From: Roseomonas gilardii subsp. gilardii
GTDB lineage: Bacteria; Pseudomonadota; Alphaproteobacteria; Acetobacterales; Acetobacteraceae
NCBI RefSeq assembly: GCF_023078375.1
Contig: NZ_CP095554.1
Span: 375,001 to 439,000 of the forward strand
Reading direction: 5' to 3'
DNA length: 64,000 nt
Below the pieces are notes generated by a model. It was not told the DNA's origin and did no database searches. It saw nothing but the letters and a program-made list of their open reading frames with translations. The translations under genes were made by a program, and so were the position numbers. Below are positions 13,051 through 59,210 of the stretch, piece after piece (position 1 is the first letter of the stretch; each line of letters opens with the position of its first letter).

Positions 13051-13148
13051 CGGAAGGCCGGCCGCGGACGGGCGCCTCGCCAACCCGGTCAGGTCCGGAA
13101 GGAAGCAGCCGCAACGAGTTTCCGCCCGGGTCGTGTGTCGGTCTTCCA
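13051..13148 (+). ncRNA. ffs: Signal recognition particle RNA (small bacterial 4.5S type)
   Basis: The universally conserved SRP domain IV loop (GGTCAGGTCCGGAAGGAAGC and the following AGCC) lies at 13088-13110. Flanking arms pair as a single long hairpin: GGAAGGCCG (13052-13060) with CGGTCTTCC (13139-13147), GGACGGGCG with CGCCCGGGTC, and CTCG with CGAG next to the loop. This gives a molecule of about 97 nt, the size of the small bacterial SRP RNA. Location just upstream of dnaX matches alphaproteobacterial synteny. Ends are set from the outer helix and are good to a few bases. Confidence 0.93.
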
Positions 13149-13227
13149 CCCCGAGCAGGACCGCCTTCCCCCGCCGGTTCCGCAGTCGCCCCACCTGTCG
13201 TCCACGACGCCCTTTCCCCGGGACCGG

Positions 13228-15153
13228 ATGCCCAGCGACCTTCCCTCGACCGAGAACGAGATCCCCGAGCCGCCCGCCGAGGGTCCCGGCCTGTTCGGGG
13301 AGGCCCCGGCTTCCCCGGCCCCCGGCCCCCTTCCTCCGCCGGCCGCCGCTCCGGCGCCCGCGGAGGCTCCGGCCCAGCCCTACCGCGTCCTCGCCCGGAA
13401 GTACCGGCCCAGCAGCTTCGCGGATCTGGTCGGGCAGGACGCCATGGTCCGCACCCTGCGCAATGCCTTCGCGCAGAACCGCATCGCCCATGCCTTCATG
13501 CTCACCGGCATACGCGGCGTGGGGAAGACCACCACCGCCCGCATCATCGCCCGCGCGCTGAACTGCACCGGGCCGGACGGCCAGGGCGGCCCGACCGTGG
13601 AGCCCTGCGGCGTCTGCCCCGACTGCCGCGCCATCCTGGCCGACCGGCACCCGGACGTGATGGAGCTGGACGCCGCCTCCAACAACGGCGTGGACAATGT
13701 GCGGGAGCTGCGGGAGCAGGTGCGCTTCCGCCCCGTCCAGGGCCGCTGCAAGGTCTTCATCCTGGACGAGGTGCACATGCTCTCCGGGCCGGCCTTCAAC
13801 GCGCTGCTGAAGACGCTGGAGGAACCGCCGCCCGGGGTGCGCTTCATCTTCGCCACCACGGAGCTGCGCAAGGTCCCGGCCACGATCCTGTCGCGCTGCC
13901 AGACCTTCCACCTGCGCCGCATGTCGCAGGCGGAGCTGGCCGGCCTCTTCTCCCGCATCGCGGAGAAGGAGGGCGCGAGGCTGGAGGACGAGGCGCTGGC
14001 CATGATCGCCCGTGCCGCCGACGGCTCGGCCCGCGACGGGCTCTCCCTGCTCGATCAGGCCATCGCGCTCTCCGAGGATGGCGGCAGCGTCACCGCCCAG
14101 GCGGTGCGCGACATGCTGGGCCTCGCCGATCGCGCCCTGGTGCTGGATGTGATGGAGGCCGCCATGCGCGGCGACGTCGCCGCCATGCTCGCCACCATGG
14201 ACCGGGCGCATGAGGTCGGCGCCGATCCGGGCGTGCTGCTTTCCGACCTCGCCGACCTGACGCACCAGCTCACCCGGCTGCGCTCCGTGCCCACGCTGCG
14301 CAACGACCCCACCCTGCCGGAGGAACTCCGCGGCCGTGGCGCCGCCCTGGCGGACAGGCTTTCCATCCCCGTGCTGGGCCGTGCCTGGCAGATGCTCCTG
14401 AAAGGGCTGGAGGAGATCGCCCTCGCCCCCGACCGCCGCGCGGCGGCGGAGATGGTGCTGATCCGCCTCGCCCATGTGGCGGAGATGCCGACGCCGGGCG
14501 AGATCCTGCGCCGCCTGCAGGAAGGCGGCAGCGTCCCGGCCCGCGCCCCCTCGCCGGGAGGCGGCCCCGCCCCCAATGGCGGCGCCCGCATGGCCGGTGG
14601 CGGCGGTTCCATGATGGCCGCCGGTGGCGGCGGGGCGGTGGCCTATGCCGAGGCCGCGCCCGCACCGCAGCCCGGCTCCTTCCGCGAGGTCGTGGCCCTG
14701 GCCTCGGGCCGCAAGCCGATGCTGCATGCCCATCTGGTGCACAGCGTCCGCCTCGTTTCCTTCGGGCGCGGCCGGCTGGAGCTGAACCCGACGCCGCAGG
14801 CGCCACGCGACCTCGCCGCCCAGCTCACCGCCCTGTTGAACGAGGTGACGGGTCAGCGCTGGACCGTGGTGCTCTCCAATGCCGGGGGCGAGCCGACCCT
14901 GGCCGAACAGGGCAAGGCCGTCGCCGCGCAGGCCCGCGAACTGGCCGAAAGCCACCCGCTGGTCCAGGCCGTGCTGGCCGCCTTCCCCGGCGCGAAGATC
15001 GAGGATGTGCGGGACAACACGCTGGACGAATACGGCCTGCCCCCCGCCGCCGCCGAGGAAGCCGCCTTCGGCACCGCCGGGATGGAGGAAGGCGACGACC
15101 GCGAGTTCGCCCCGCCGGATGCCGAGCCCGCCGGGATAGACGATCTCGACTGA
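13228..15153 (+). CDS. dnaX: DNA polymerase III subunit gamma/tau
   Basis: A 641-residue clamp-loader ATPase. After a Pro/Ala-rich N-terminal tail of about 50 residues comes YRVLARKYRPSSFADLVGQD, Walker A GIRGVGKTTTAR (about residue 94), the zinc module CGVCPDC (about residue 127), Walker B KVFILDEVHMLS and the SRC sensor ILSRCQTFHLRRM. The C-terminal tau part (from about residue 400) ends in an acidic tail. The open frame runs upstream to 12934 across the SRP RNA, which cannot be coding there; the ATG at 13228 is the first start after that RNA. Whether a gamma form is made by slippage cannot be judged; no long A run is present. Confidence 0.95.
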   Translation: MPSDLPSTENEIPEPPAEGPGLFGEAPASPAPGPLPPPAAAPAPAEAPAQPYRVLARKYRPSSFADLVGQDAMVRTLRNAFAQNRIAHAFMLTGIRGVGKTTTARIIARALNCTGPDGQGGPTVEPCGVCPDCRAILADRHPDVMELDAASNNGVDNVRELREQVRFRPVQGRCKVFILDEVHMLSGPAFNALLKTLEEPPPGVRFIFATTELRKVPATILSRCQTFHLRRMSQAELAGLFSRIAEKEGARLEDEALAMIARAADGSARDGLSLLDQAIALSEDGGSVTAQAVRDMLGLADRALVLDVMEAAMRGDVAAMLATMDRAHEVGADPGVLLSDLADLTHQLTRLRSVPTLRNDPTLPEELRGRGAALADRLSIPVLGRAWQMLLKGLEEIALAPDRRAAAEMVLIRLAHVAEMPTPGEILRRLQEGGSVPARAPSPGGGPAPNGGARMAGGGGSMMAAGGGGAVAYAEAAPAPQPGSFREVVALASGRKPMLHAHLVHSVRLVSFGRGRLELNPTPQAPRDLAAQLTALLNEVTGQRWTVVLSNAGGEPTLAEQGKAVAAQARELAESHPLVQAVLAAFPGAKIEDVRDNTLDEYGLPPAAAEEAAFGTAGMEEGDDREFAPPDAEPAGIDDLD

Positions 15154-15184
15154 TCCGGACGACGACCCGGTCTGGCGTCGCTCT

Positions 15185-15495
15185 GTCCCGGGGGACAAGG
15201 CTCCGCCTTTTCCCCCGGCCCCCTTATCCGCCAGGACCCTGAGGGTCCTGGACCTCCCATTCGTTGGTACTTCCTGCGCCCGGATCACACCGGAGAGCTT
15301 GGCTCTCCGGCGACTGCCGGTGCCACCAGCGCGGAGAAGGATTCTTTCTTTTCGGGAGCTGCGCTGATCCACCTGCGCTCAGGAATCGGACGGCAGACTG
15401 ACGACCACCATCGGTGCCAACGAAAGCCCGGGGTCCGGGGACCGGCTTCGGTCCCCGGCGGAGAGGGTGTGGGAGAGGCAGCGCCTCTCCCACGG
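15185..15495. repeat. Dispersed multi-hairpin intergenic element, copy A
   Basis: It fills the gap between the 3' ends of dnaX and the converging pirin gene and has no coding frame. In order: hairpin 1 (15188-15218, arms GGGGGACAAGGC and GCCTTTTCCCCC), hairpin 2 (15231-15251, arms CCAGGACCC/GGGTCCTGG), a strand TTCGTTGG (15260-15267), hairpin 3 (15290-15310, arms CCGGAGAGC/GCTCTCCGG), a GCGCGGAGAAGGATTCTTTC segment, CCAACGAA (15417-15424, complementary to the earlier TTCGTTGG), hairpin 4 (15435-15458, arms GGGGACCG/CGGTCCCC) and hairpin 5 (15469-15493, arms GTGGGAGAGGC/GCCTCTCCCAC). Copies B and C share this order. Any of the hairpins may also act as a bidirectional terminator. The family is not recognised. 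Confidence 0.85.
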
Positions 15496-15518
15496 AGGCA
15501 TCCGGCGGCGACGCCGCC

Positions 15519-16424
15519 TCAGGACATGGCGGGCGCCGAGGGCATCGGCCCGTCGGGCAGCGGGATGAATTCCTGGTCGTCCGCATCGGGCAGCTTCATG
15601 CGCCCGGCCCGCCAGTCAGCCGCCGCCTGGGCCAGCCGGTCCTTCGAGGAGGAGACGAAGTTCCAGTAGAGATAGCGCGGCCCGACCGGCTCGCCGCCCA
15701 GGATCATCACGGTCGCCTCGCCGATGGCACGGAGCGAGGATTCCCCCCGGCCCAGCACCAGCATCCGCCCCGGCCCGTACTGCACGCCGCCCATCTCCAC
15801 CGCGCCTGTGGCCACATAGAGCGCGCGTTCGGCGAAGCCCGCCGGGATCTCAGCCCGTGCCCCGGCTTCCAGCCCGAGATGCACGTAGAAGAGCGGCGAA
15901 TGGGTGCGCGCCGCGGCATTCAGACCGTAGGCGCTGCCGGCGATCACCTGGCCATGCACACCACCTTCGCTCCATTGCGGCAGGTCGGCGCCGGCGTGAT
16001 GGGAAAAGGCGGGGTCGGTCTCCTCCGCCCCGCTGGGCAGCGCGACCCAGGCCTGGATGCCATGCAGGCGGTCGCCTTCGGCGCGCGCCTTCTCGAATCG
16101 CTCGCTATGCGTGATGCCGCGCCCGGCCGTCATCCAGTTCACCTCGTTCGGCCGGATCGGCTGCTTCGAGCCGATGCTGTCGCGGTGCATGATCTCGCCG
16201 GAGAAGAGATAGGTCACGGTGGAGAGGCCGATATGCGGGTGCGGCCGCACGTCCAGCGACCGGTCGATGCCGGGGGCGAGCTCGATCGGGCCCATATGGT
16301 CGAAGAAGACGAAGGGCCCGACCATGCGCCGCTTCGCGAAGGGCAGGACGCGCCCGACCTCGATTCCACCGCCCAGGTCGCGGCGGCGCTGCTCGATCAC
16401 CAGTTCCACCAGAGGTTCGGCCAT
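15519..16424 (-). CDS. Pirin-family cupin protein
   Basis: A 301-residue protein with two cupin barrels. The N-terminal barrel carries the pirin metal site: FVFFDHMGP, RPHPHIGLSTVTYLFSGE and IMHRDS, with histidines and a glutamate expected to bind iron. EVNWMTAGRGITHSERFE follows, typical of the family. The C-terminal barrel includes LFYVHLGLEAGARAEIPAGF. I chose the ATG at 16424 (GGAGAAGAG upstream, protein MAEPLVELVIEQ); the frame extends to 16526 without conserved content. Pirins include quercetinase-like enzymes and redox-sensing regulators, so the function is open. It converges on dnaX across repeat copy A. Confidence 0.9.
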   Translation of the reverse strand: MAEPLVELVIEQRRRDLGGGIEVGRVLPFAKRRMVGPFVFFDHMGPIELAPGIDRSLDVRPHPHIGLSTVTYLFSGEIMHRDSIGSKQPIRPNEVNWMTAGRGITHSERFEKARAEGDRLHGIQAWVALPSGAEETDPAFSHHAGADLPQWSEGGVHGQVIAGSAYGLNAAARTHSPLFYVHLGLEAGARAEIPAGFAERALYVATGAVEMGGVQYGPGRMLVLGRGESSLRAIGEATVMILGGEPVGPRYLYWNFVSSSKDRLAQAAADWRAGRMKLPDADDQEFIPLPDGPMPSAPAMS

Positions 16425-41156: not shown

Positions 41157-41195
41157 TCCGTCCGGCGTTGCGCCTCACGCGTCTGGCGTTGCGCT

Positions 41196-41515
41196 TTTCC
41201 CGGGGGACAAGGCTCCGCCTTTCCCCCGGCCCCCTATCCGCCAGGACGCTGCGCGCCCTGGACCCCATTCGTTGGCGCCTGCTGCGGCAGATCGCGCCGG
41301 AGAGCATGGCTCTCCGGCGACTGCGGGTGCCACAAGCGCGGACAAGGTGTTCTTTTTCTTTTCAGGATCCCCGCTGATCCACCCGCGCCAAGGGGACCAG
41401 CCTACAGACCAATGGCAGCCACCAGCACCAGCGAAAGCCCGGGGTCCGGGGACCGGCTTCGGTCCCCGGCGGAGTGGGGGTCCGGGGGCGAGGCGGAGCC
41501 TTGCCCTCGGAGGGC
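41196..41515. repeat. Dispersed multi-hairpin intergenic element, copy B
   Basis: Lies between the 3' ends of a rightward binding-protein gene and the leftward cobW gene. Order matches copy A: hairpin 1 (41199-41229), hairpin 2 (41241-41261), TTCGTTGG (41268-41275), hairpin 3 (41297-41317), GCGCGGACAAGG with a T-rich tract, CCAGCGAA (41428-41435, pairing with TTCGTTGG through one G-T), hairpin 4 (41446-41469) and hairpin 5 (41486-41506, arms GGGCGAGGC/GCCTTGCCC). In hairpin 2 the eighth pair is G-C instead of C-G, and in hairpin 5 the fourth pair is C-G instead of A-T. Both are two-sided changes that keep the stem. Confidence 0.85.
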
Positions 41516-41543
41516 CACCACGAAGCGGAACGGTCCGCTCGTA

Positions 41544-42475
41544 TCACCCCGGCCCGGCGATGCAGGCCGCCATGACCTGTTCGATCTCCGCGGCCGAGAG
41601 GGCACCGATCTCCGCGATGAAGACGATCCGCGCGCGGGGCAGGTCCGGCGGCGGCGGACCGGCCGGGGCCAGGGTTGCCCGTCCTCGGCGAGCTGGAACA
41701 GGAATTGGCGGCCCGGCTGCTCCACGGTCTCGAACAACCCCTTGGCGCGGGCGAGGCGGGGGGCGAGCCGGGCGATGGCCTGCTGCAACCGGGGCAGCGA
41801 GAGGGGCCGGCCGGAGGTCCAGCTCAGCGTCTCGAAACGGTCGGCGGATGGGCGGCGGCGGCCCGGGTCACGCGGCGCCGGCAGGTGGGCGGGGTCTTCC
41901 GGGAAGAGCAGTTCCAGCGGCACCCGGCCCTGCGGCGCATCGACGACGACCGCCGCCGGGCGCAGCGCCTTCACGGCGGCACGGACCGCGTCCCGCCCGG
42001 GGGCATCGGCGAGGTCCACCTTGCTCAGCGCCACCACATCCGCGGCACGGAGCTGGGCGCGGAGCAGCGGATCCTCCAGCGCCGCCGGCGGGGCGGCCGC
42101 ATCCACCACGCAGAGCACGGTCTCCAGCGGCGCCTCGCGCCAGATCACCGGGTCCATGAGGTTGCGGACGATGTCGCCGGGCTCGGCCACGCCGCTGGTC
42201 TCGATCACGATGGCCTCCGGGCGCGGGTCGCGCCGCAGGAGGGTGGCCAGCGTGCGCAGCAGGTCGCCTTCCAGCGAGCAGCAGATGCAGCCGTTGGACA
42301 GGCTGACGACCCCGTCGCTGGCGCCGGCGATCAGCTCCGCGTCGATGTTGATCGCGCCGAAGTCGTTGACCACGGCGGCGATGCGCCGCCCCCCGGCATG
42401 GGCCAGGAGATGGTTCACCACCGTGGTCTTGCCTGCCCCGAGGAAGCCGGCGACCAGCAGGACGGGGACGGGCAT
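41544..42475 (-). pseudogene. CobW/COG0523 GTP-dependent metallochaperone, frameshifted near its end
   Basis: A GTPase of the CobW/YjiA/ZNG family: P-loop VAGFLGAGKTTVVNHLL, VNDFGAINIDAELI, the metal-binding CICC in LSNGCICCSLEGDLL, IVIETSGVAEPGD and guanine motif LSKVDLADAPG. The C-terminal domain reads RFETLSWTSGRPLSLPRLQQ to FLFQLAEDGQPW, after which the frame is lost. One extra C near 41650-41665 restores RARIVFIAEIGALSAAEIEQ and a stop at 41544, giving about 310 residues. It follows an amidohydrolase gene by five bases. Such chaperones deliver zinc or other metals, and its metal-dependent neighbour is an obvious client. Confidence 0.85.
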
Positions 42476-53941: not shown

Positions 53942-53966
53942 CACCCGGCCCACTGTTCCGGCATTG

Positions 53967-54300
53967 CTCTGTCCCTCCGGGGGACAAGGCTCCGCCTTTT
54001 CCCCCGCCCCCTTATCCGCCAGGACCCTGCGGGCCCTGGACCCCGTTCGTTGGCACTCTCTGACGCTGGATCGCGCCGGAGAGCGATGCTCTCCGGCGAC
54101 TGTGGATGCCACCAGCGCGGAGAAGGATTCTTTCTTTTCGGGAGCCCCGCTGATTCACCTGCTTCCCGGGTTTGGGCCACAGCACAGCGGCACCCACCAG
54201 GGCCAACGAAAGCCCGGGGTCCGGGGACCGGCTTCGGTCCCCCATCATGGTCATGGGCGGAGTGAGGGTCCGGGCGGAGAGGCAGAGCCTCTCCCCCGGG
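53967..54300. repeat. Dispersed multi-hairpin intergenic element, copy C
   Basis: Lies between the 3' ends of the importer ATPase gene and the leftward DUF4214 gene. Same order as copies A and B: hairpin 1 (53977-54006), hairpin 2 (54019-54039), TTCGTTGG (54046-54053), hairpin 3 (54076-54096, same stem as A with loop GAT), GCGCGGAGAAGGATTCTTTC identical to copy A, CCAACGAA (54203-54210), hairpin 4 (54221-54242) and hairpin 5 (54276-54294). A short insertion (about 54243-54256) separates hairpins 4 and 5. No coding frame is present. Confidence 0.85.
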
Positions 54301-54324
54301 GCCAGCCATGGAAAGCAAGGACGA

Positions 54325-56409
54325 TCAGACGAAGGCGATGCCGTTGTGGATACCGTCGCTGCCGGTGTTCGCCTTGGTCAGCGCCTGGTGTTCCGGGCTC
54401 TCGGACACGGCCAGCAGCACTCCCCCACGCGAAAGGGCGTGGGTTTCCAGCAGGTTCATGAAGAAGGCGTAGCCCCCCGCATCCGGCTCGCGATGCAGGG
54501 CGGTGTGATAGAGGCCGCTGACGAAGGCCGCGTCGCTCTGCTGCCCATGCACCATGTTCCATTCCGGCGTGGTCAGCCACAGTTCCGGCAGTTGCGCGAA
54601 GGTGAATTTCTCTCCCTTCACCGCCGTCACCCAGTTCTCGAGCCCCTCTCGGTCCGGCAGGCGCCCGAAGGCCGCGTCGTAGAGGCGGGCGATGGGGACC
54701 GCGGTCTGGTCGGGGATCCAGATTCCTGCCTCGATCTGGCTGGCCGTATTGGCGCGGTTCTCCCGCCCCTCGGACATCGACAGCACGGCCTGTTCCAGCC
54801 CCTCCGACGAGAAGGCGGACAACGAGACGATGCCGCTGGAGGCCGATCCGTAAACATGGCTCTCGATCCGCGCCAGGATGCCCGCCAGATCCGTCGCGCC
54901 TCCCGCCCGGAATTCCGGACTGGCCAGGAAGTCGTGCGCCAGTGTCTCCAGGCTGCCGCCCGCCTCCAGGAAGGCGACGTGATGCTGCAGGCCGGCCTGG
55001 TCCGGCAACCGGTTCAGGATGGATTTATAGAGCCGAACGACCTCCGCCGCCGCATCATCCGCGCCGAAGACCAGCCGGCCATCCGTCAGGGTGACGACAT
55101 CCAGCGCCGCGGCGTGATAGGCGGTGCTGCCGTGCAGGATGGTGACGCCGCTGCTGCCGTCGCTGACCTGGACCTCCCGCAGCCCGGTCGCGTGCAGGGC
55201 GGCGACGCTCCGGCCCGCCGCATCCTGGGTGACGGCCAGGGCCTGCAACACCCCGGTGGTCACAGCCACGCCGGTGGCGGGAGTCCAGAGCGGCAGGCCC
55301 TGATCGTCATAGACCGCATGGCCCTGGCCCGAGCCGCTGTTATCCGCAAGCCGGCCATAGCCCCAGCCGTAATGGAGCGTCCCGCCCGTCAGCGGCAGGT
55401 CCGACGCGAAGTCCAGCCGCAGCGTGTCGCCATCCACGACCGTGACATGCGTGGCGGCGATGGAGGTTCCATCCGCCAGCCGGACCGTCCATCCCAGGCC
55501 GGAGGCCGCCGCGTCGCTGAGCGCGGCGAAGGCATGGGCGCCGTCATGCTGCACATCGACGGTCAGGCTGGTGGCGCCGATCCGCCGCGCCCAGATGACC
55601 TCCGGCCCCTCATTGTCGATATGGCCCAACGCCAGCGCGAGGGGTGAGCCGGGCAGGGCGTATTCCGCCCAGCCCTCCGCGATGCTGAGCGCGGCGCGCT
55701 GGATCACCAGAGCGGCATCGCCGGCAGACATGTGGCCGCCACCGTAATCCGTGGTGGCCGCATTGGCGTCGAGGTTGTCGAAACTCATGTCCAGGTCGAG
55801 GGCCCGGGCGGCGATCACGGCATTGAAGCTCGCATCGGCCGCCAGCTTCTCCATGACCTGGCGGATCACCTGGAGGCCATCAGGCGCGTAGTCGCGATAG
55901 GGGATCGCGCTGACGAAGTCATAGGACATGTCCAGCGCCGAATCGCCGAAGGCCGCGCGCAGCAGCGCGGCGTCGTAGCGGACAGCGCTTTCCCACATCG
56001 CCGCCGCGGTGGCCGTGGTGAGGCTGCCGTTCTGGATGCCGTGCTGCAGGGTCAGGCTGTCGGTCTCGTTGTGCAGCCAGAGCACGGTGGTGGGATTGTC
56101 CCGCAGATCGGCGGAAAGGCCCTGGACGTAGTTCAGCAGCCGCTGTTCCACCGTGCCGGCTGTCCAGCCCTGCTGCCAGTCGCCGTTCACCGCCGTCAGC
56201 CAGTCGCCCAGGAAGCCGGTGGCGCCCTGGATGGTGGTGGCCGTGCTGTCCGAGGCACTGAGAGGTCCGGCCAGGATATGGACCTGGTTCTGGACGCCAT
56301 CGAAGCCGAGAAGCGCCTCGACGGCCTGTTTCAGCCTGTTCGCGCCGCCGAAATTGAGCGCCAGGAGCTCAGCATTGGACTGGCCCCGCACCAGAATGTT
56401 GAGATCCAA
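54325..56409 (-). CDS. DUF4214 protein with SGNH/sialate-esterase-like N-terminal domain
   Basis: A 694-residue protein without a Sec signal. The N-terminus NILVRGQSNAELLAL carries the GQSN block of SGNH/SASA carbohydrate esterases, with TTVLWLHNETDSL and DYGGGHMSAGDAALV offering possible oxyanion and histidine positions. A beta-rich middle (about 260-430) follows. The C-terminal third has three DUF4214 units: VVRLYKSILNRLPDQAGLQH, IARLYDAAFGRLPDREGLEN and VSGLYHTALHREPDAGGYAF. DUF4214 occurs in large exported and S-layer-type proteins, often type I substrates; the C-terminal NGIAFV would fit such a secretion signal. It could act on surface polysaccharide. Catalysis is inferred only. Confidence 0.75.
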   Translation of the reverse strand: MDLNILVRGQSNAELLALNFGGANRLKQAVEALLGFDGVQNQVHILAGPLSASDSTATTIQGATGFLGDWLTAVNGDWQQGWTAGTVEQRLLNYVQGLSADLRDNPTTVLWLHNETDSLTLQHGIQNGSLTTATAAAMWESAVRYDAALLRAAFGDSALDMSYDFVSAIPYRDYAPDGLQVIRQVMEKLAADASFNAVIAARALDLDMSFDNLDANAATTDYGGGHMSAGDAALVIQRAALSIAEGWAEYALPGSPLALALGHIDNEGPEVIWARRIGATSLTVDVQHDGAHAFAALSDAAASGLGWTVRLADGTSIAATHVTVVDGDTLRLDFASDLPLTGGTLHYGWGYGRLADNSGSGQGHAVYDDQGLPLWTPATGVAVTTGVLQALAVTQDAAGRSVAALHATGLREVQVSDGSSGVTILHGSTAYHAAALDVVTLTDGRLVFGADDAAAEVVRLYKSILNRLPDQAGLQHHVAFLEAGGSLETLAHDFLASPEFRAGGATDLAGILARIESHVYGSASSGIVSLSAFSSEGLEQAVLSMSEGRENRANTASQIEAGIWIPDQTAVPIARLYDAAFGRLPDREGLENWVTAVKGEKFTFAQLPELWLTTPEWNMVHGQQSDAAFVSGLYHTALHREPDAGGYAFFMNLLETHALSRGGVLLAVSESPEHQALTKANTGSDGIHNGIAFV

Positions 56410-56592
56410 TGAATTGCCCCCGCAAGAAATTCATTGGATGTCCAATACGCGCCCCGCATGTAATTTCCCTTAATCGAGAAAATTTCTATTTTTTATTGAT
56501 TTCGTTTTGCCTTGTGGGTTCTTTGTTCATCACTTGTTCGTGGTTTAACCAGCGGACAACATTCCGAATCAGGAATTTCCCCTTTCCGGGCG
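56410..56592. promoter_or_regulatory. AT-rich region upstream of the DUF4214 gene
   Basis: About 56455-56570 is among the most AT-rich DNA of the window (for example GAAAATTTCTATTTTTTATT). It should contain the promoter of the leftward DUF4214 gene. The base composition contrasts strongly with the flanks and may mark a recombination junction with the adjacent gene remnant. No specific motif is recognised. Confidence 0.4.
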
Positions 56593-57153
56593 GGTGACTG
56601 CAGCACGCGGATCCGCAAGTATGTCGGGCAGACGGGCGGCAAGCTCGCCACGCCCACCGTCATCACCACGGCCTTCACCGATGCGCCGTCCGGCCACACC
56701 GGCATGATCGCCGGGGCCATGTTTCACATGACCGGGGCCTGGCAGCAGTCCGCCGATGTCCAGAAGGAGGGCTTCTACCTCGCCGCCGCCCACAACGCGG
56801 CCTCGGGTGTCGAACTGATCCGGGTTTCCGATCCCGCCAAGGCCGACATCACCCCGCACTACGAGGAGGCGACGGAGGATGCCATCGGCCTGAGCATTCC
56901 CTTCGCCGGTACCTACAAGCGGCCGGAATACGAATGGAGCCGCGCCTATAGCGTGATGACCCAGCCGCCATGCCCTGAACCGGGAGGCCGATGCCGGCGG
57001 CCACGCGGCCTGGACGCAGATACTCGACAGCGGCGCGATGAGCCGGACCCAGGTGCTGCTCAACTTCGCCCATGGCGAGGCCCATCTGAGCGTGGACAAG
57101 GACCAGGTGATGAGCGACATCCCAGAGGCCACTACGGCATCGCCTTCGCCTGA
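56593..57153 (+). pseudogene. Remnant of a second DUF4214-type protein
   Basis: No start codon with a plausible ribosome-binding site exists. The first 370 bases encode an unrecognised fragment (RKYVGQTGGKLATPTVITTA to RPEYEWSRAYSVMTQ). In another frame, about 56965-57130, follows a DUF4214-like tail: RHALNREADAGGHAAWTQIL then SRTQVLLNFAHGEAHLSVDK. It aligns with the last unit of the neighbouring 694-residue protein (YHTALHREPDAGG). A third frame supplies the ending HYGIAFA, matching that protein's NGIAFV. At least two frame changes are needed, of opposite sign, plus a missing 5' end, so this one looks like genuine decay or a chimeric junction. Confidence 0.55.
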
Positions 57154-57186
57154 CAGCCCTGCCCGCTTCCTGGCGGACAGGCGCGC

Positions 57187-58130
57187 TCAGCGCGGCCTGT
57201 CCGTCAGGCTCGAATGGACCCAGCCCCAGGGCTGATCCGCCCCCACCTGGTACCAGCCGCCTAGGGCCTCCCGGAAGACGGACAAGGCGGTGCCGCGCGG
57301 CAAGGTGCGCAGGACCTGCGACGGGTTCCGTGGCTCGGTGCGCAGGTTGCCGGCCTGCCTCATCGTGATCCTCGCGATGACCGGGGCGGCCGGTGCCGCT
57401 TCCTCCACGCGCCGGGCCTGAGCGGGGGTTCCGCATCCGGTCTGGCCGGCACCGGCGCGGCATCCGGCAGGCGGGCCGCCGGGCGGGGATCATCCGTTCC
57501 CGGCCTCGCATCGGGGGCCGGCATGGGCGGCCGTGGCGATGGCGCCTGAGCCGGGGGGATGGCTCCGGGATCAGCGGAAGGCCCCGGCAGGGGCTGGGCC
57601 GGGAGAGCTTGAGGGGGAAGAGGCCGGGCGGGGGGTGGCTGAGGAGGCGCAGGGAAGAGCAGGGTCCGGACAGCCTCCACCCCCTCCGTGGGAAGCAGGA
57701 TCCAACCACCGGCCAGCAGGCCGGCGCAAACCAGCAGGCCAGCCATCCACCCCCTGCCGTGGCGGGTGCCGGGCGGCCGGGATGCCTCGGGGTCGGAAAG
57801 TGGCGCGGGCCGATCGGCCAGTTGCTCCGCCCATCGCTCCCGGGAAGCCTGGGAAGTCGAGAGAAGCCGTTGGACCGCCATCAGCGTGGCCCGCATCTTT
57901 GCCGGGTCAGGCTGCTCGGCCCGAAGCTGCGTCCGGATGTCGAGCAGCAGGAATTCGATATTGGCACGTGCAGGATATGGGATGGAATGCAACCTGCCGG
58001 CGATGTCATCGACCGTTGCCAGGATCCTGAGGGCTTCGAATCTCCGCTTCGCCGTCTGTCCAGCCTGTGCGCCGAATTCCGCCTTGTTCGTTCCCTGCCG
58101 CGATCGCGCATCCTGCTGGAACATATTCAC
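57187..58130 (-). pseudogene. Membrane protein with proline-rich linker and bacterial SH3 domain, frameshifted as read
   Basis: The N-terminal frame has a helical cytoplasmic region (FEALRILATVDDIAGRLHSI, IEFLLLDIRTQLRAEQPDPA), one membrane helix (WMAGLLVCAGLLAGGWILL, about residues 131-150) and about 80 residues of Pro/Ala-rich linker. In a second frame (57187 to about 57420) comes an SH3_3 domain: NLRTEPRNPSQVLRTLPRGT, FREALGGWYQVG and WGWVHSSLTDRPR. One extra C in the CCCCC run near 57426-57430 fuses them as AQARRVEEAAPAAPVIARIT, giving about 314 residues. Start is GTG 58130 or ATG 58124. It probably places an SH3 domain in the periplasm, binding peptidoglycan or another ligand. Its partner is unknown. 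Confidence 0.65.
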
Positions 58131-58435
58131 CCCTGATCTTCCCAGAGTAGCAAAAGGAACATCGCATCAACTTACGATGTTCCCGCGCAAGCCAGCGAAA
58201 GAGATCCTCCTCGTCGCCTCGCTCTTCGATTTCAGGGGACTTAAAAACAGACTCCGGGCATGAGTGCAAATTCCATCGGCGTGCCGCAGGAATTCTTTGG
58301 ATGCCTGGAGTCAGGCTTTCTTGCCCTGCCCGGAAGACTCATCCGGACCACCGGATCGGGCAGCGAAACAATGGGCGGGACGCGCCGTGTCAGCCAAGCC
58401 CCTCTGCTTACCGGAGCAGAGGGGCATGCATCAGA
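58131..58435. other. Spacer between SH3-protein and CapA-like genes
   Basis: The 305 bp stretch contains the promoter side of the leftward SH3 gene (AT-rich near 58135-58180) and the hairpin that probably ends the leftward CapA-like transcript. Small frames here lack ribosome-binding sites and conserved content. Confidence 0.45.
58399..58424 (-). terminator. Hairpin after the CapA-like gene
   Basis: A perfect 10 bp stem, CCCCTCTGCT/AGCAGAGGGG, with a six-base loop, 11 bases beyond the CapA-like stop. There is no T run on the minus strand, so termination would be Rho-assisted or weak. Confidence 0.6.
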
Positions 58436-59102
58436 TCAGCGCGGCGCCTGCTGCCGACCCTCCGCCGGGGTGCCCGCAGCAGCAGCGGATATCCTGATCA
58501 CCCCGACATCGCCATCCGTCTCTATGACGGTGTTGAAGGGCCGTGAGAAATCCTGCAGATCCTTCAGGATACGCTGCGCGACATCATGGTCCGGCACGCG
58601 CGGCGTGCCCATCTGCGACCCGTGCCGGTTGCGGCCCAGATCGAGCGGATAGAGCCGGATTTCGGCGAAGCGACCATTCCCGTAACGGGTCGTGGCCAGG
58701 ACCGTCCCGAGATTGCAGGAGTTTGCAGCCAGGCCCAGCAGCGGGCATTCAACTGCCCGAGCCCCATGGCTGTCGTCGTCGGGCCCGGCATGATCTCGGT
58801 CTGGAACACGTGGCTGGACAGGCCGTAGAAGATTGGCCGCCCCTGTAGATCGCCGCCAGCAGGGCCTCGCCGGCGGTGCTGCCCAGGAGCAGCCGGTTTG
58901 GCTCCTCCCCCACAACGATGTACCACGGACAGATGCGCGGTGCGGGAGCGCCAGCCCTTGGTCCGGGGATGATCGGGCCAGGGATCGTTGCCGAGCAGGG
59001 CAAGGTGTTCAAGGCCATGGAGCGGCGAATGGCCGCCGAACCGGATGAAGAGTGCGTCACCCGCCACGTCACGTCGGAAGGACAAGAAAACCGGATGGTC
59101 AC
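58436..59102 (-). pseudogene. CapA-like (poly-gamma-glutamate synthesis family) gene, broken
   Basis: Three successive frames give one family-like C-terminal half: PWYIVVGEEPNRLLLGSTAG and LLAAIYRG, then GRPIFYGLSSHVFQTE, then ECPLLGLAANSCNLGTVLAT, FAEIRLYPLDLGRNRHGSQM and PRVPDHDVAQRILKDLQDFS. The IYRGRPIFY and EIRLYPLDLG blocks are CapA/PgsA metallophosphatase-family landmarks. Each join needs one extra G (in GGGG near 58845 and in GGG near 58750). The N-terminal metallophosphatase half is missing: upstream of about 59000 no frame is recognisable. So even with base corrections it is a fragment, probably a true pseudogene. Confidence 0.5.
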
Positions 59103-59168
59103 GTGATGTCCGGCGACAGCGAAAGACCCATGGCAGGCGTTGCTTTCGCCATCGCGCCTGCCATGTCC

Positions 59169-59210
59169 TTCTGGATCAGCCCTTCTGGATCAGCCCTTCT
59201 GGATCAGCCC
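59169..59210. repeat. 14-bp tandem repeat, three copies, overlapping the prpB stop
   Basis: TTCTGGATCAGCCC occurs three times exactly, plus a partial fourth unit that enters the prpB coding end. The stop codon TGA of prpB (59204-59206, minus strand) lies inside the unit nearest the gene, so the array seems to have grown outward from the gene's last codons. Confidence 0.85.

What the first reader, a model, noticed from the sequence alone, without database searches (positions are those of the whole stretch)
15185..15495. Undescribed ~310 bp structured intergenic element (copy A) with five hairpins and a long-range helix
The same ordered set of hairpins occurs three times in this 64 kb window (with 41196-41515 and 53967-54300). 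Stems are conserved while loops and linkers vary. Between copies A and B, hairpin 2 changes a C-G pair to G-C and hairpin 5 changes A-T to C-G, both sides together. An 8 bp strand TTCGTTGG pairs with CCAACGAA about 150 bases later in copies A and C, and with CCAGCGAA through a G-T pair in B. This is evidence of selection on RNA or DNA secondary structure. I know of no named family with this layout. It could be a non-coding RNA family, a 3'-end processing or termination module, or a non-autonomous mobile element.
Basis: partly seen in the sequence, partly recalled or inferred. Interest (0 to 1): 0.88.

Follow-up and report, generated by a model that had tools for sequence, protein, structure and literature searches.

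The report
Origin-centred structured repeat at gene ends
About ninety copies of a 340-letter folding DNA repeat sit directly after the ends of genes in a Roseomonas chromosome, clustered around the probable replication origin and almost missing from the opposite side, which makes it a large, unusual relative of the small gene-end repeats known from other bacteria.

Summary
The three window copies belong to a family with 88 hits (87 copies, full or partial; a lower bound) in this genome (Roseomonas, near R. mucosa), median full length 341 bp, no Rfam match. In 71 aligned copies, 126 cells show both-sided pair changes against 48.6 ± 8.8 in shuffles. The element is one long quasi-palindrome: two hairpin arms, inverted to each other, around a central domain.

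Copies lie at gene ends: 49 of 88 hits between convergent genes, 35 codirectional, 2 divergent; 91 of 107 flanking stop codons are within 30 bp. Orientation is indifferent. No Y1 (RAYT-type) transposase was found in the genome. This is the behaviour of REP/BIME repeats, in a much larger composite form.

Unexpected: copies centre on parB, taken as origin marker. In G000, 86 of 88 lie within 1.25 Mb of it; in sister genome G003, 39 of 39 pattern sites, though one diverged copy lies just outside. Sampled ter-half DNA has conserved genes and similar convergent-junction density but almost no copies. At shared sites, position and orientation persist while sequence is mostly replaced.

Best reading: a bidirectional transcript-end module (inferred, not shown). 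The cause of the distribution is open.

The parts
15170..15502 (+). Copy A, full element, between dnaX (13228-15153, +) and a pirin gene (15519-16424, -)
   Evidence: nhmmer hit C1:390170-390502; flanking Pfam matches
15188..15218 (+). hp1, outer hairpin of arm 1
   Evidence: fold and alignment
15219..15232 (+). outer stem, 5' strand (CCCCCTTATCCGCC), pairs with 15457-15468
   Evidence: consensus fold, helix 4: 89.5% of cells paired, 0 of 11 pairs with a both-sided change
15233..15249 (+). hp2, arm 1 side hairpin with the C-G to G-C change
   Evidence: helix 5
15250..15267 (+). inner stem 5' strand including TTCGTTGG
   Evidence: helices 6 and 7
15290..15310 (+). hp3, perfect 9-bp palindrome with variable 3-nt centre, the best paired hairpin (98.2% of cells)
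   Evidence: helix 8; pattern counts 80 fwd + 83 rev in the genome (both strands of a palindrome count), control 0
15340..15354 (+). conserved pyrimidine-rich tract (TTCTTTCTTTTC) in the centre
   Evidence: alignment
15365..15389 (+). central hairpin (GATCCACCTG...CAGG.ATC)
   Evidence: helix 10
15417..15436 (+). inner stem 3' strand including CCAACGAA
   Evidence: helices 6 and 7
15437..15456 (+). hp2', arm 2 side hairpin
   Evidence: helix 11
15457..15468 (+). outer stem, 3' strand
   Evidence: helix 4
15469..15493 (+). hp1', outer hairpin of arm 2, with the A-T to C-G change
   Evidence: helix 12
41181..41527 (+). Copy B, full element, between a periplasmic-binding-protein gene (+) and a cobW-like gene (-); the orthologous site in G003 has no element
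53955..54316 (+). Copy C, full element, between an ABC-transporter ATPase gene (+) and a DUF4214 gene (-)

Best explanation
It is a high-copy, composite structured repeat of the REP/BIME kind in the broad sense (not of the RAYT/GTAG family). Two palindromic arms, inverted to each other, enclose a central hairpin domain. Because it is quasi-palindromic it folds in much the same way on both strands. I think it most likely works as a bidirectional transcript-end module: RNA from either flanking gene runs into it just after the stop codon, folds into the stacked hairpins, and is terminated or protected from 3' exonucleases there. Shown: copy number, structure, gene-end placement, orientation indifference, no strong U-tract terminator in the three window copies, presence/absence between species, and sequence replacement at most conserved sites. 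Inferred: the termination or 3'-protection function, gene conversion between copies as the cause of the replacement, and an unidentified mobilising activity. The parB-centred distribution is shown; its cause is not explained by this function alone.
For: Placement: 49 of 88 hits convergent against 62 of 380 background junctions (16%), 2 of 88 divergent against 83 of 380 (22%) (own ORF caller). Distance to a stop codon: median 16 bp, 91 of 107 at most 30 bp (5 of these 107 are negative, the called ORF running into the element); to a start codon: median 93 bp, 3 of 34 within 30 bp. That leaves little room for another terminator. The same placement is described for REPs (PMC3733652, passages read: conv-REPs next, <20 bp, to both 3' ends). 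Orientation relative to codirectional genes 18:17. Covariation beyond shuffles and slid controls. No consistent favoured strand. Weak hint of RNA-level selection: arm-1 hairpins have 10 pairs with A-C over G-T against 3, arm-2 hairpins 3 against 8, as expected if each transcript uses the arm it leaves through. At copy B the empty G003 site has a short spacer in a stretch able to form a single hairpin (read by eye).
Against: No RNA-seq or termination assay. The terminator scan found one weak U-tract site in each of copies A and C, none in B, and no excess over shuffles in the regions scanned. The element is much larger than a terminator needs to be. Termination does not explain the near-absence of copies from the ter half, whose convergent junctions are as frequent in evenly spaced G003 stretches (27 in 220 kb against 22 in 180 kb). 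In those same G003 stretches only 2 of the 7 copies over 90 bits fell in a called convergent gap, so the convergent excess rests on G000. Compensatory changes could also come from template switching within palindromes, without selection. The arm asymmetry in G-T and A-C rests on few pairs of shared ancestry.
Confidence: 0.45

Rival explanations
1. Chromosome-organising site: the palindromic DNA (hp3 above all) is bound by a protein that marks the origin-proximal half, as SlmA or Noc sites do in nucleoid occlusion, or a segregation or supercoiling factor. The gene-end position is then only the harmless place to keep it.
For: Copies centre on parB: G000 mean direction 31 kb from parB, 86 of 88 hits within 1.25 Mb; G003 68 kb, 39 of 39 pattern sites. 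Density falls outward, though not strictly bin by bin (G000 per 0.25 Mb: 22, 28, 18, 10, 8, 0, 2, 0; G003: 19, 4, 8, 4, 4, 0, 0, 0). In G013, 12 of the 14 hp3 sites listed on C1 lie within 1.25 Mb of its parB (positions; distances by hand; the one C2 site left out). 360 kb sampled from the ter half of G000 held 1 partial copy against 12.4 expected at origin-half density. Noc (about 70) and SlmA (24-52) palindromic sites are not uniformly distributed either (PMC4726725, passages), SlmA sites being more abundant near the origin (PMC4117426, start of abstract in the listing).
Against: Far larger than a protein site, and many hairpins, not one, are maintained. No binding protein identified. 11 of 15 genomes of the genus have no hp3 match at up to 2 mismatches, although some of these have arms or a similar layout with other sequences. 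The origin is placed by parB only. The origin-proximal half is somewhat better conserved between G000 and G003 (91.3% against 88.6% identity in matched DNA), which could preserve old copies.
Confidence: 0.2
2. Selfish, non-autonomous mobile repeat with no host function, spread by an unidentified transposase or recombinase, surviving only where it does no harm (gene ends) and homogenised by gene conversion.
For: Copies present in G000 and absent at the orthologous G003 site: 4 of 16 comparable sites; 10 full and 2 partial at the same site. Lineage-restricted sequence family. Deletion derivatives and half copies.
Against: No clear target duplication at 7 occupied/empty comparisons. No Y1_Tnp match in the genome, while the control rang in 5 of 14 genomes; other transposase families were not searched. 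No autonomous parent seen. Nearly absent from plasmids (1 record with a 79-bp arm match in 72,556) and phages (0 of 50,697 records). Depletion from the ter half. Structure kept in most copies (90.3% of cells paired).
Confidence: 0.25
3. A trans-acting small RNA gene family with its own promoters.
For: Stable fold, compensatory changes.
Against: Similar fold on both strands, no consistent strand preference of G-T over A-C, no promoter-like site near the three window copies (sigma-70 consensus only), copies many and mosaic.
Confidence: 0.05

Closest known systems
REP sequences and BIMEs (bacterial interspersed mosaic elements; PMC2817692, PMC3733652, passages read)
   Same: High copy, palindromic units in inverted arrangement, mosaic exchange of hairpin modules, placement near stop codons between convergent or codirectional genes, complementary mutations kept, an IS110-like insertion sequence inserted in one hairpin (family recognised by eye; IS110 elements target REPs, PMC1525189, passages).
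   Different: About 340 bp with a fixed order of hairpins closed by long-range stems, rather than 20-40 bp units; no GTAG tag noticed; no Y1 (RAYT-type) transposase match in the genome; parB-centred distribution.
CGTC-tagged REPs of alphaproteobacteria (PMC3733652)
   Same: Palindromic, alphaproteobacterial, gene-end placement, apparently no dedicated transposase.
   Different: 8-9 bp stems and short units; that paper reports them missing from Acetobacteraceae; the outer ends here often read CGTC but are only weakly conserved.
SlmA and Noc binding sites (PMC4726725 passages, PMC4117426 abstract start)
   Same: Tens of palindromic chromosomal sites with an uneven distribution that favours the origin side.
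   Different: Those are short protein sites (14 bp for Noc); no binding protein is known here.
MITEs
   Same: Non-autonomous, short, repeated, structured, with inverted ends.
   Different: No sharp terminal repeat boundary and no target duplication seen.

Membership tests
REP/BIME (broad class) | High-copy intergenic palindromic repeats (>100 copies usual, PMC2817692 abstract) | tested here: met
   88 hits, 87 copies full or partial, plus further diverged ones in stretches not chosen for them; a little under the usual count, and the unit is far larger
REP/BIME (broad class) | Palindromic units in alternating orientation | tested here: met
   Arm 1 and arm 2 match each other's reverse complement in many copies
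REP/BIME (broad class) | Placed close to 3' ends, convergent or codirectional, rarely divergent | tested here: met
   for G000; in seven G003 copies from unselected stretches only 2 were in convergent gaps
GTAG REP / REPIN of the RAYT system | RAYT (Y1, IS200/IS605-like) transposase in the genome | tested here: not met
   0 matches of PF01797 in G000
GTAG REP / REPIN of the RAYT system | GTAG or CGTC tetranucleotide at one end of each short hairpin | tested here: inconclusive
   No GTAG tag noticed by eye in alignments; CGTC frequent at the weakly conserved outer end but not fixed; no formal count made
MITE | Target-site duplication at occupied/empty site comparison | tested here: inconclusive
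   None evident at 7 comparisons, but flanks are about 85-95% identical and low-complexity
Known Rfam RNA family | Score above gathering threshold | tested here: not met
   Only the SRP RNA at 13053-13149 in the window; best at copy A E = 0.19, noise
Intrinsic terminator | GC hairpin followed by U tract | tested here: not met
   One weak site in each of copies A and C, none in B, no excess over shuffles in the scanned regions
Nucleoid-occlusion-type site | Origin-proximal, terminus-avoiding distribution | tested here: met
   origin placed by parB only, terminus not located
Nucleoid-occlusion-type site | Specific DNA-binding protein that acts on division | not testable with these tools
   Needs pull-down or ChIP

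The most novel reading that the evidence does not exclude
A previously undescribed chromosome-address system: about 90 large structured palindromic elements, maintained by ongoing sequence conversion at fixed sites, mark the origin-proximal half of the Roseomonas chromosome and are kept out of the terminus half, acting through a DNA- or RNA-structure-binding factor in segregation, division timing or supercoil control while doubling as gene-end insulators.
Probability: 0.18. Interest if true: 0.87.

Novelty: new variant of a known kind. Interest (0 to 1): 0.62.

Why it matters
If the reading holds, REP/BIME-like repeats can take the form of 340-bp composite elements in a genome without a detectable RAYT-type transposase, and can show strong chromosome-scale order: centred on parB in two species (the same trend in a third) and nearly missing from the far half, although the sampled far half has conserved genes and similar numbers of suitable sites. 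That makes a long-standing question, whether such repeats organise chromosomes, end transcripts, or merely persist, directly testable in Roseomonas. Copies that stay at the same site and orientation while their sequence is replaced are also a clean natural case of concerted evolution in a bacterium.

Tried and rejected
Rejected or unproductive: (1) Rfam: gathering threshold over the window and E-value mode at copy A only: nothing. (2) RAYT/IS200 mobiliser: no Y1_Tnp hit; no other transposase family was searched. (3) Replication terminus by a recalled E. coli-type dif motif: 0 of 4 genomes matched, so ter is only inferred as opposite parB. (4) parS by a recalled motif: one 2-mismatch palindrome at C1:736758, 42 kb from parB, not enough on its own. 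(5) GC skew: weak and noisy in both genomes, not used as proof of the origin. (6) dnaA at 3.61 Mb is not the centre of the distribution; parB is taken as origin marker, an assumption from general knowledge. If the origin were at dnaA, 'origin-centred' should read 'parB-centred'. A second, below-cut-off parB-like match lies at C1:3.15 Mb. (7) Foreign ter half as the reason for absence: 340 kb of G000 ter stretches are covered 6.7% by 180 kb of the G003 ter half at 88.6% identity, about 8% being expected if fully conserved (expectation by hand), so mostly not foreign. (8) Independent insertion at shared sites: no inverted case was reported among full-full comparisons, which include the 14 pairs (12 sites). 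(9) Target duplication: none evident. (10) Pirin-flank comparison over 15 genomes: uninformative outside the near relatives; the script's stop and next-gene choice was also wrong in the near ones. (11) Literature: six searches (listings showed 20 of 4,121, 11 of 11, 10 of 146, 8 of 8, 12 of 2,506 and 4 of 4 papers); none listed describes this element by title or abstract start. Roseomonas was a term only. The REP survey PMC12306157 (passages) has no mention of Roseomonas. Only open-licence PMC papers were searchable.

Results against the reading, or limits: the outer stem has no both-sided change. The G-T to A-C balance depends on the structure: 480:334 for the fold predicted on the + strand, 285:620 for that predicted on the - strand, 228:265 for the core, which takes most helices from the latter. 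In 5 of 14 orthologous pairs the orthologue is still the closest copy in the other genome, so those were not replaced. Pattern searches missed diverged or partial copies (L211, L212, L213, L215, L217), so 88 is a lower bound and was not corrected. One of the 88 hits is the second half of a copy split by an insertion sequence (L065), giving 87 copies. One full copy lies at 2.49 Mb, one partial at 3.35 Mb, and G003 has one at about 1.11 Mb (1.32 Mb from parB). 17 of the 88 hits (partial or incomplete) are dropped from the 71-row alignment and from the 107/34 distance counts. The four 'empty' calls against G004 rest on poorer flanks. Part of the background junction set came from stretches chosen between known copies.

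Full report
WHAT WAS CHECKED. Copy A folds far better than shuffled sequence on either strand (z -6.6 and -5.5). Rfam finds nothing there. The window lies at C1:375001-439000 of a 4.62 Mb genome.

HOW MANY COPIES. A similarity search returned 40 long matches (229-311 of 311 query bases; 78-86% identity apart from the query itself) and 3 short ones, with 40 of 189 candidates scored. Two pattern searches (the list was cut) and that search merge to 84 sites. I fetched these with flanks, and an HMM gave 88 separate hits, 87 copies since one is split by an insertion sequence. 71 run nearly end to end; their median length is 341 bp. Further diverged or partial copies turned up in stretches not chosen for them, so the count is a lower bound. 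None of the listed sites is on the second replicon.

ANATOMY. Order: weakly conserved end, hp1, outer stem, hp2, inner stem, TTCGTTGG, central domain (hp3 with a 9-bp stem and a free 3-nt centre; a pyrimidine tract; a second hairpin), CCAACGAA, inner stem, hp2', outer stem, hp1', weakly conserved end. Arms 1 and 2 match each other's reverse complement, so the whole is one long quasi-palindrome. Conservation fades gradually about 25 bp outside hp1 and no sharp terminal repeat is seen. Whole-hairpin variants recur in separate combinations: an insert in hp1 is seen in L042, L058, L074 and L111, and a different insert in hp2 in L058, L074, L076 and L113. All four combinations exist (by eye), which points to recombination between copies.

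COVARIATION. For a stated structure of 87 pairs on 71 copies: 90.3% of cells paired (shuffles 88.1 ± 0.1), 126 cells with both-sided changes (48.6 ± 8.8; slid controls 18-41), covariation score 0.109 (0.075 ± 0.002; slid 0.033-0.058), 25 pairs with a both-sided change (17.9 ± 2.4, 3 of 500 shuffles as high). 'Further pair types' is weaker (81 vs 76.0 ± 2.9, 31 of 500). The structure was taken from this alignment, which favours it over slid versions. The strong cases are local: hp1, hp2, hp2' and hp1'. The outer long-range stem has 0 of 11 pairs changed on both sides; the inner stems have 4 of 16. Between species, hp3 reads GCCGGAGAGC-NNN-GCTCTCCGGC in nearly all listed G000 and G004 sites but GCCGGGGAGC-NNN-GCTCCCCGGC in all 15 G013 sites found at up to 2 mismatches: both sides changed in every one. 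G-T cells (228) and A-C cells (265) are about equal in this core structure; other structures shift the balance either way, so there is no consistent strand preference. Split by arm, arm-1 hairpins lean to A-C and arm-2 hairpins to G-T (10:3 and 3:8 pairs), a weak hint that each arm acts in the RNA that leaves through it. Template switching within palindromes could also produce paired changes.

PLACEMENT. With an ORF caller of my own, 49 of 88 hits lie between convergent genes, 35 between codirectional genes, 2 between divergent genes, 2 undetermined. Among background junctions of 30 bp or more, 62 of 380 are convergent and 83 of 380 divergent (part of these stretches were chosen between known copies). 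For the 71 nearly complete copies, 91 of 107 flanking stop codons are at most 30 bp away (median 16; 5 negative values where the called ORF enters the element), but only 3 of 34 flanking start codons (median 93). Orientation relative to codirectional genes is 18:17, relative to fork direction from parB 43:45. This is the placement reported for REPs (PMC3733652, passages). In evenly spaced G003 stretches only 2 of 7 copies over 90 bits fell in called convergent gaps, a small sample that does not show the convergent excess.

CHROMOSOME-SCALE DISTRIBUTION. Nearly all copies occupy C1 0-2.0 Mb and 3.78-4.2 Mb. The only parB match over its cut-off on C1 lies at 778 kb. The mean direction of the 88 hits is 31 kb from parB, and 86 of 88 lie within 1.25 Mb (52.4 expected); counts per 0.25 Mb of distance are 22, 28, 18, 10, 8, 0, 2, 0. 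In G003, 39 of 39 hp2' sites lie within 1.25 Mb of its parB at 4.12 Mb, mean direction 68 kb from it; one more diverged copy lies 1.32 Mb away (L194). In evenly spaced G003 stretches the two halves have similar convergent-junction densities (22 in 180 kb, 27 in 220 kb) but 6 against 1 copies over 90 bits. Eighteen 20-kb stretches of the G000 ter half held 1 partial copy against 12.4 expected. The ter half is mostly not foreign, though matched DNA there is a little less alike (88.6% against 91.3%). G013 shows the same trend: 12 of its 14 listed hp3 sites on C1 within 1.25 Mb of its parB (distances by hand; its C2 site not counted). parB as origin marker is general knowledge, not a measurement here; dnaA lies elsewhere, dif was not found and GC skew is too weak to decide.

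DYNAMICS. Against about 400 kb of G003, 16 nearly complete G000 copies had both flanks placed: 10 full copies at the same site, 2 partial, 4 empty. Copy B of the window is one of the empty ones; G003 has a spacer of about 30 bp there, in a stretch able to form a simple hairpin (read by eye). Against about 390 kb of G004, 8 were placed: 2 full, 2 partial, 4 empty, with poorer flanks. In 14 pairs of full copies at shared sites (12 sites), no inverted case was reported, flanks are 91.1-96.5% identical, but element identity is 0.68-0.93, against a paralogous mean of about 0.77; 2 of 14 exceed 0.9, and in 5 of 14 the orthologue is the closest copy in the other genome. The site and direction persist while the sequence is mostly replaced, most simply by gene conversion. 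At site A, G004 has only the first half; other shortened copies lost the middle or one arm. One G000 copy carries an IS110-like insertion sequence inside hp2 (family recognised by eye, recalled).

RELATIVES. Among 15 genomes of the genus, 4 have hp3 at up to 2 mismatches (G000, G003, G004, G013). Several others have arm-length matches only, and G005 and G014 show an element of similar layout with different hairpin sequences (by fold and by eye, not tested statistically). Plasmids: one 79-bp arm match in 72,556 records; phages: none in 50,697.

INTERPRETATION. Position, palindromy, mosaicism and copy number place it with REP/BIME-like repeats as a class, but the RAYT test failed and the unit is far larger. 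I commit to a bidirectional transcript-end module as the most likely function (0.45), with a selfish repeat (0.25) and a chromosome-address element (0.2) as serious rivals. The parB-centred distribution is what a transcript-end role alone does not explain, and is the most interesting part.

Noticed in passing
L065:1805-3000 (C1:706404-707599): An IS110/IS1111-like insertion sequence (family recognised by eye) sits inside hp2 of one copy, in line with the known taste of IS110 elements for REP palindromes.
   Followed up: partly
window 41402-42475 (-): The cobW-like ORF beside copy B reads on into the element and its CobW_C domain matches only positions 1-53 of 94; possibly a frameshift or an altered gene end compared with G003.
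   Followed up: no
window 56392-59203: A 2.8 kb stretch with no gene called by codon usage, next to a DUF4214 gene; long ORFs exist on both strands.
   Followed up: no
window 13053-13149: Bacterial small SRP RNA (RF00169), just upstream of dnaX.
   Followed up: no
L037:1300-1700 (G005) and L130 (G014): Other Roseomonas species seem to have elements of the same layout (hairpin, stem, hairpin, inner stem, centre, mirrored) with different hairpin sequences: a possible genus-wide structural class.
   Followed up: partly
C1:736758-736773: The only parS-like palindrome found with up to 2 mismatches, 42 kb from parB.
   Followed up: no
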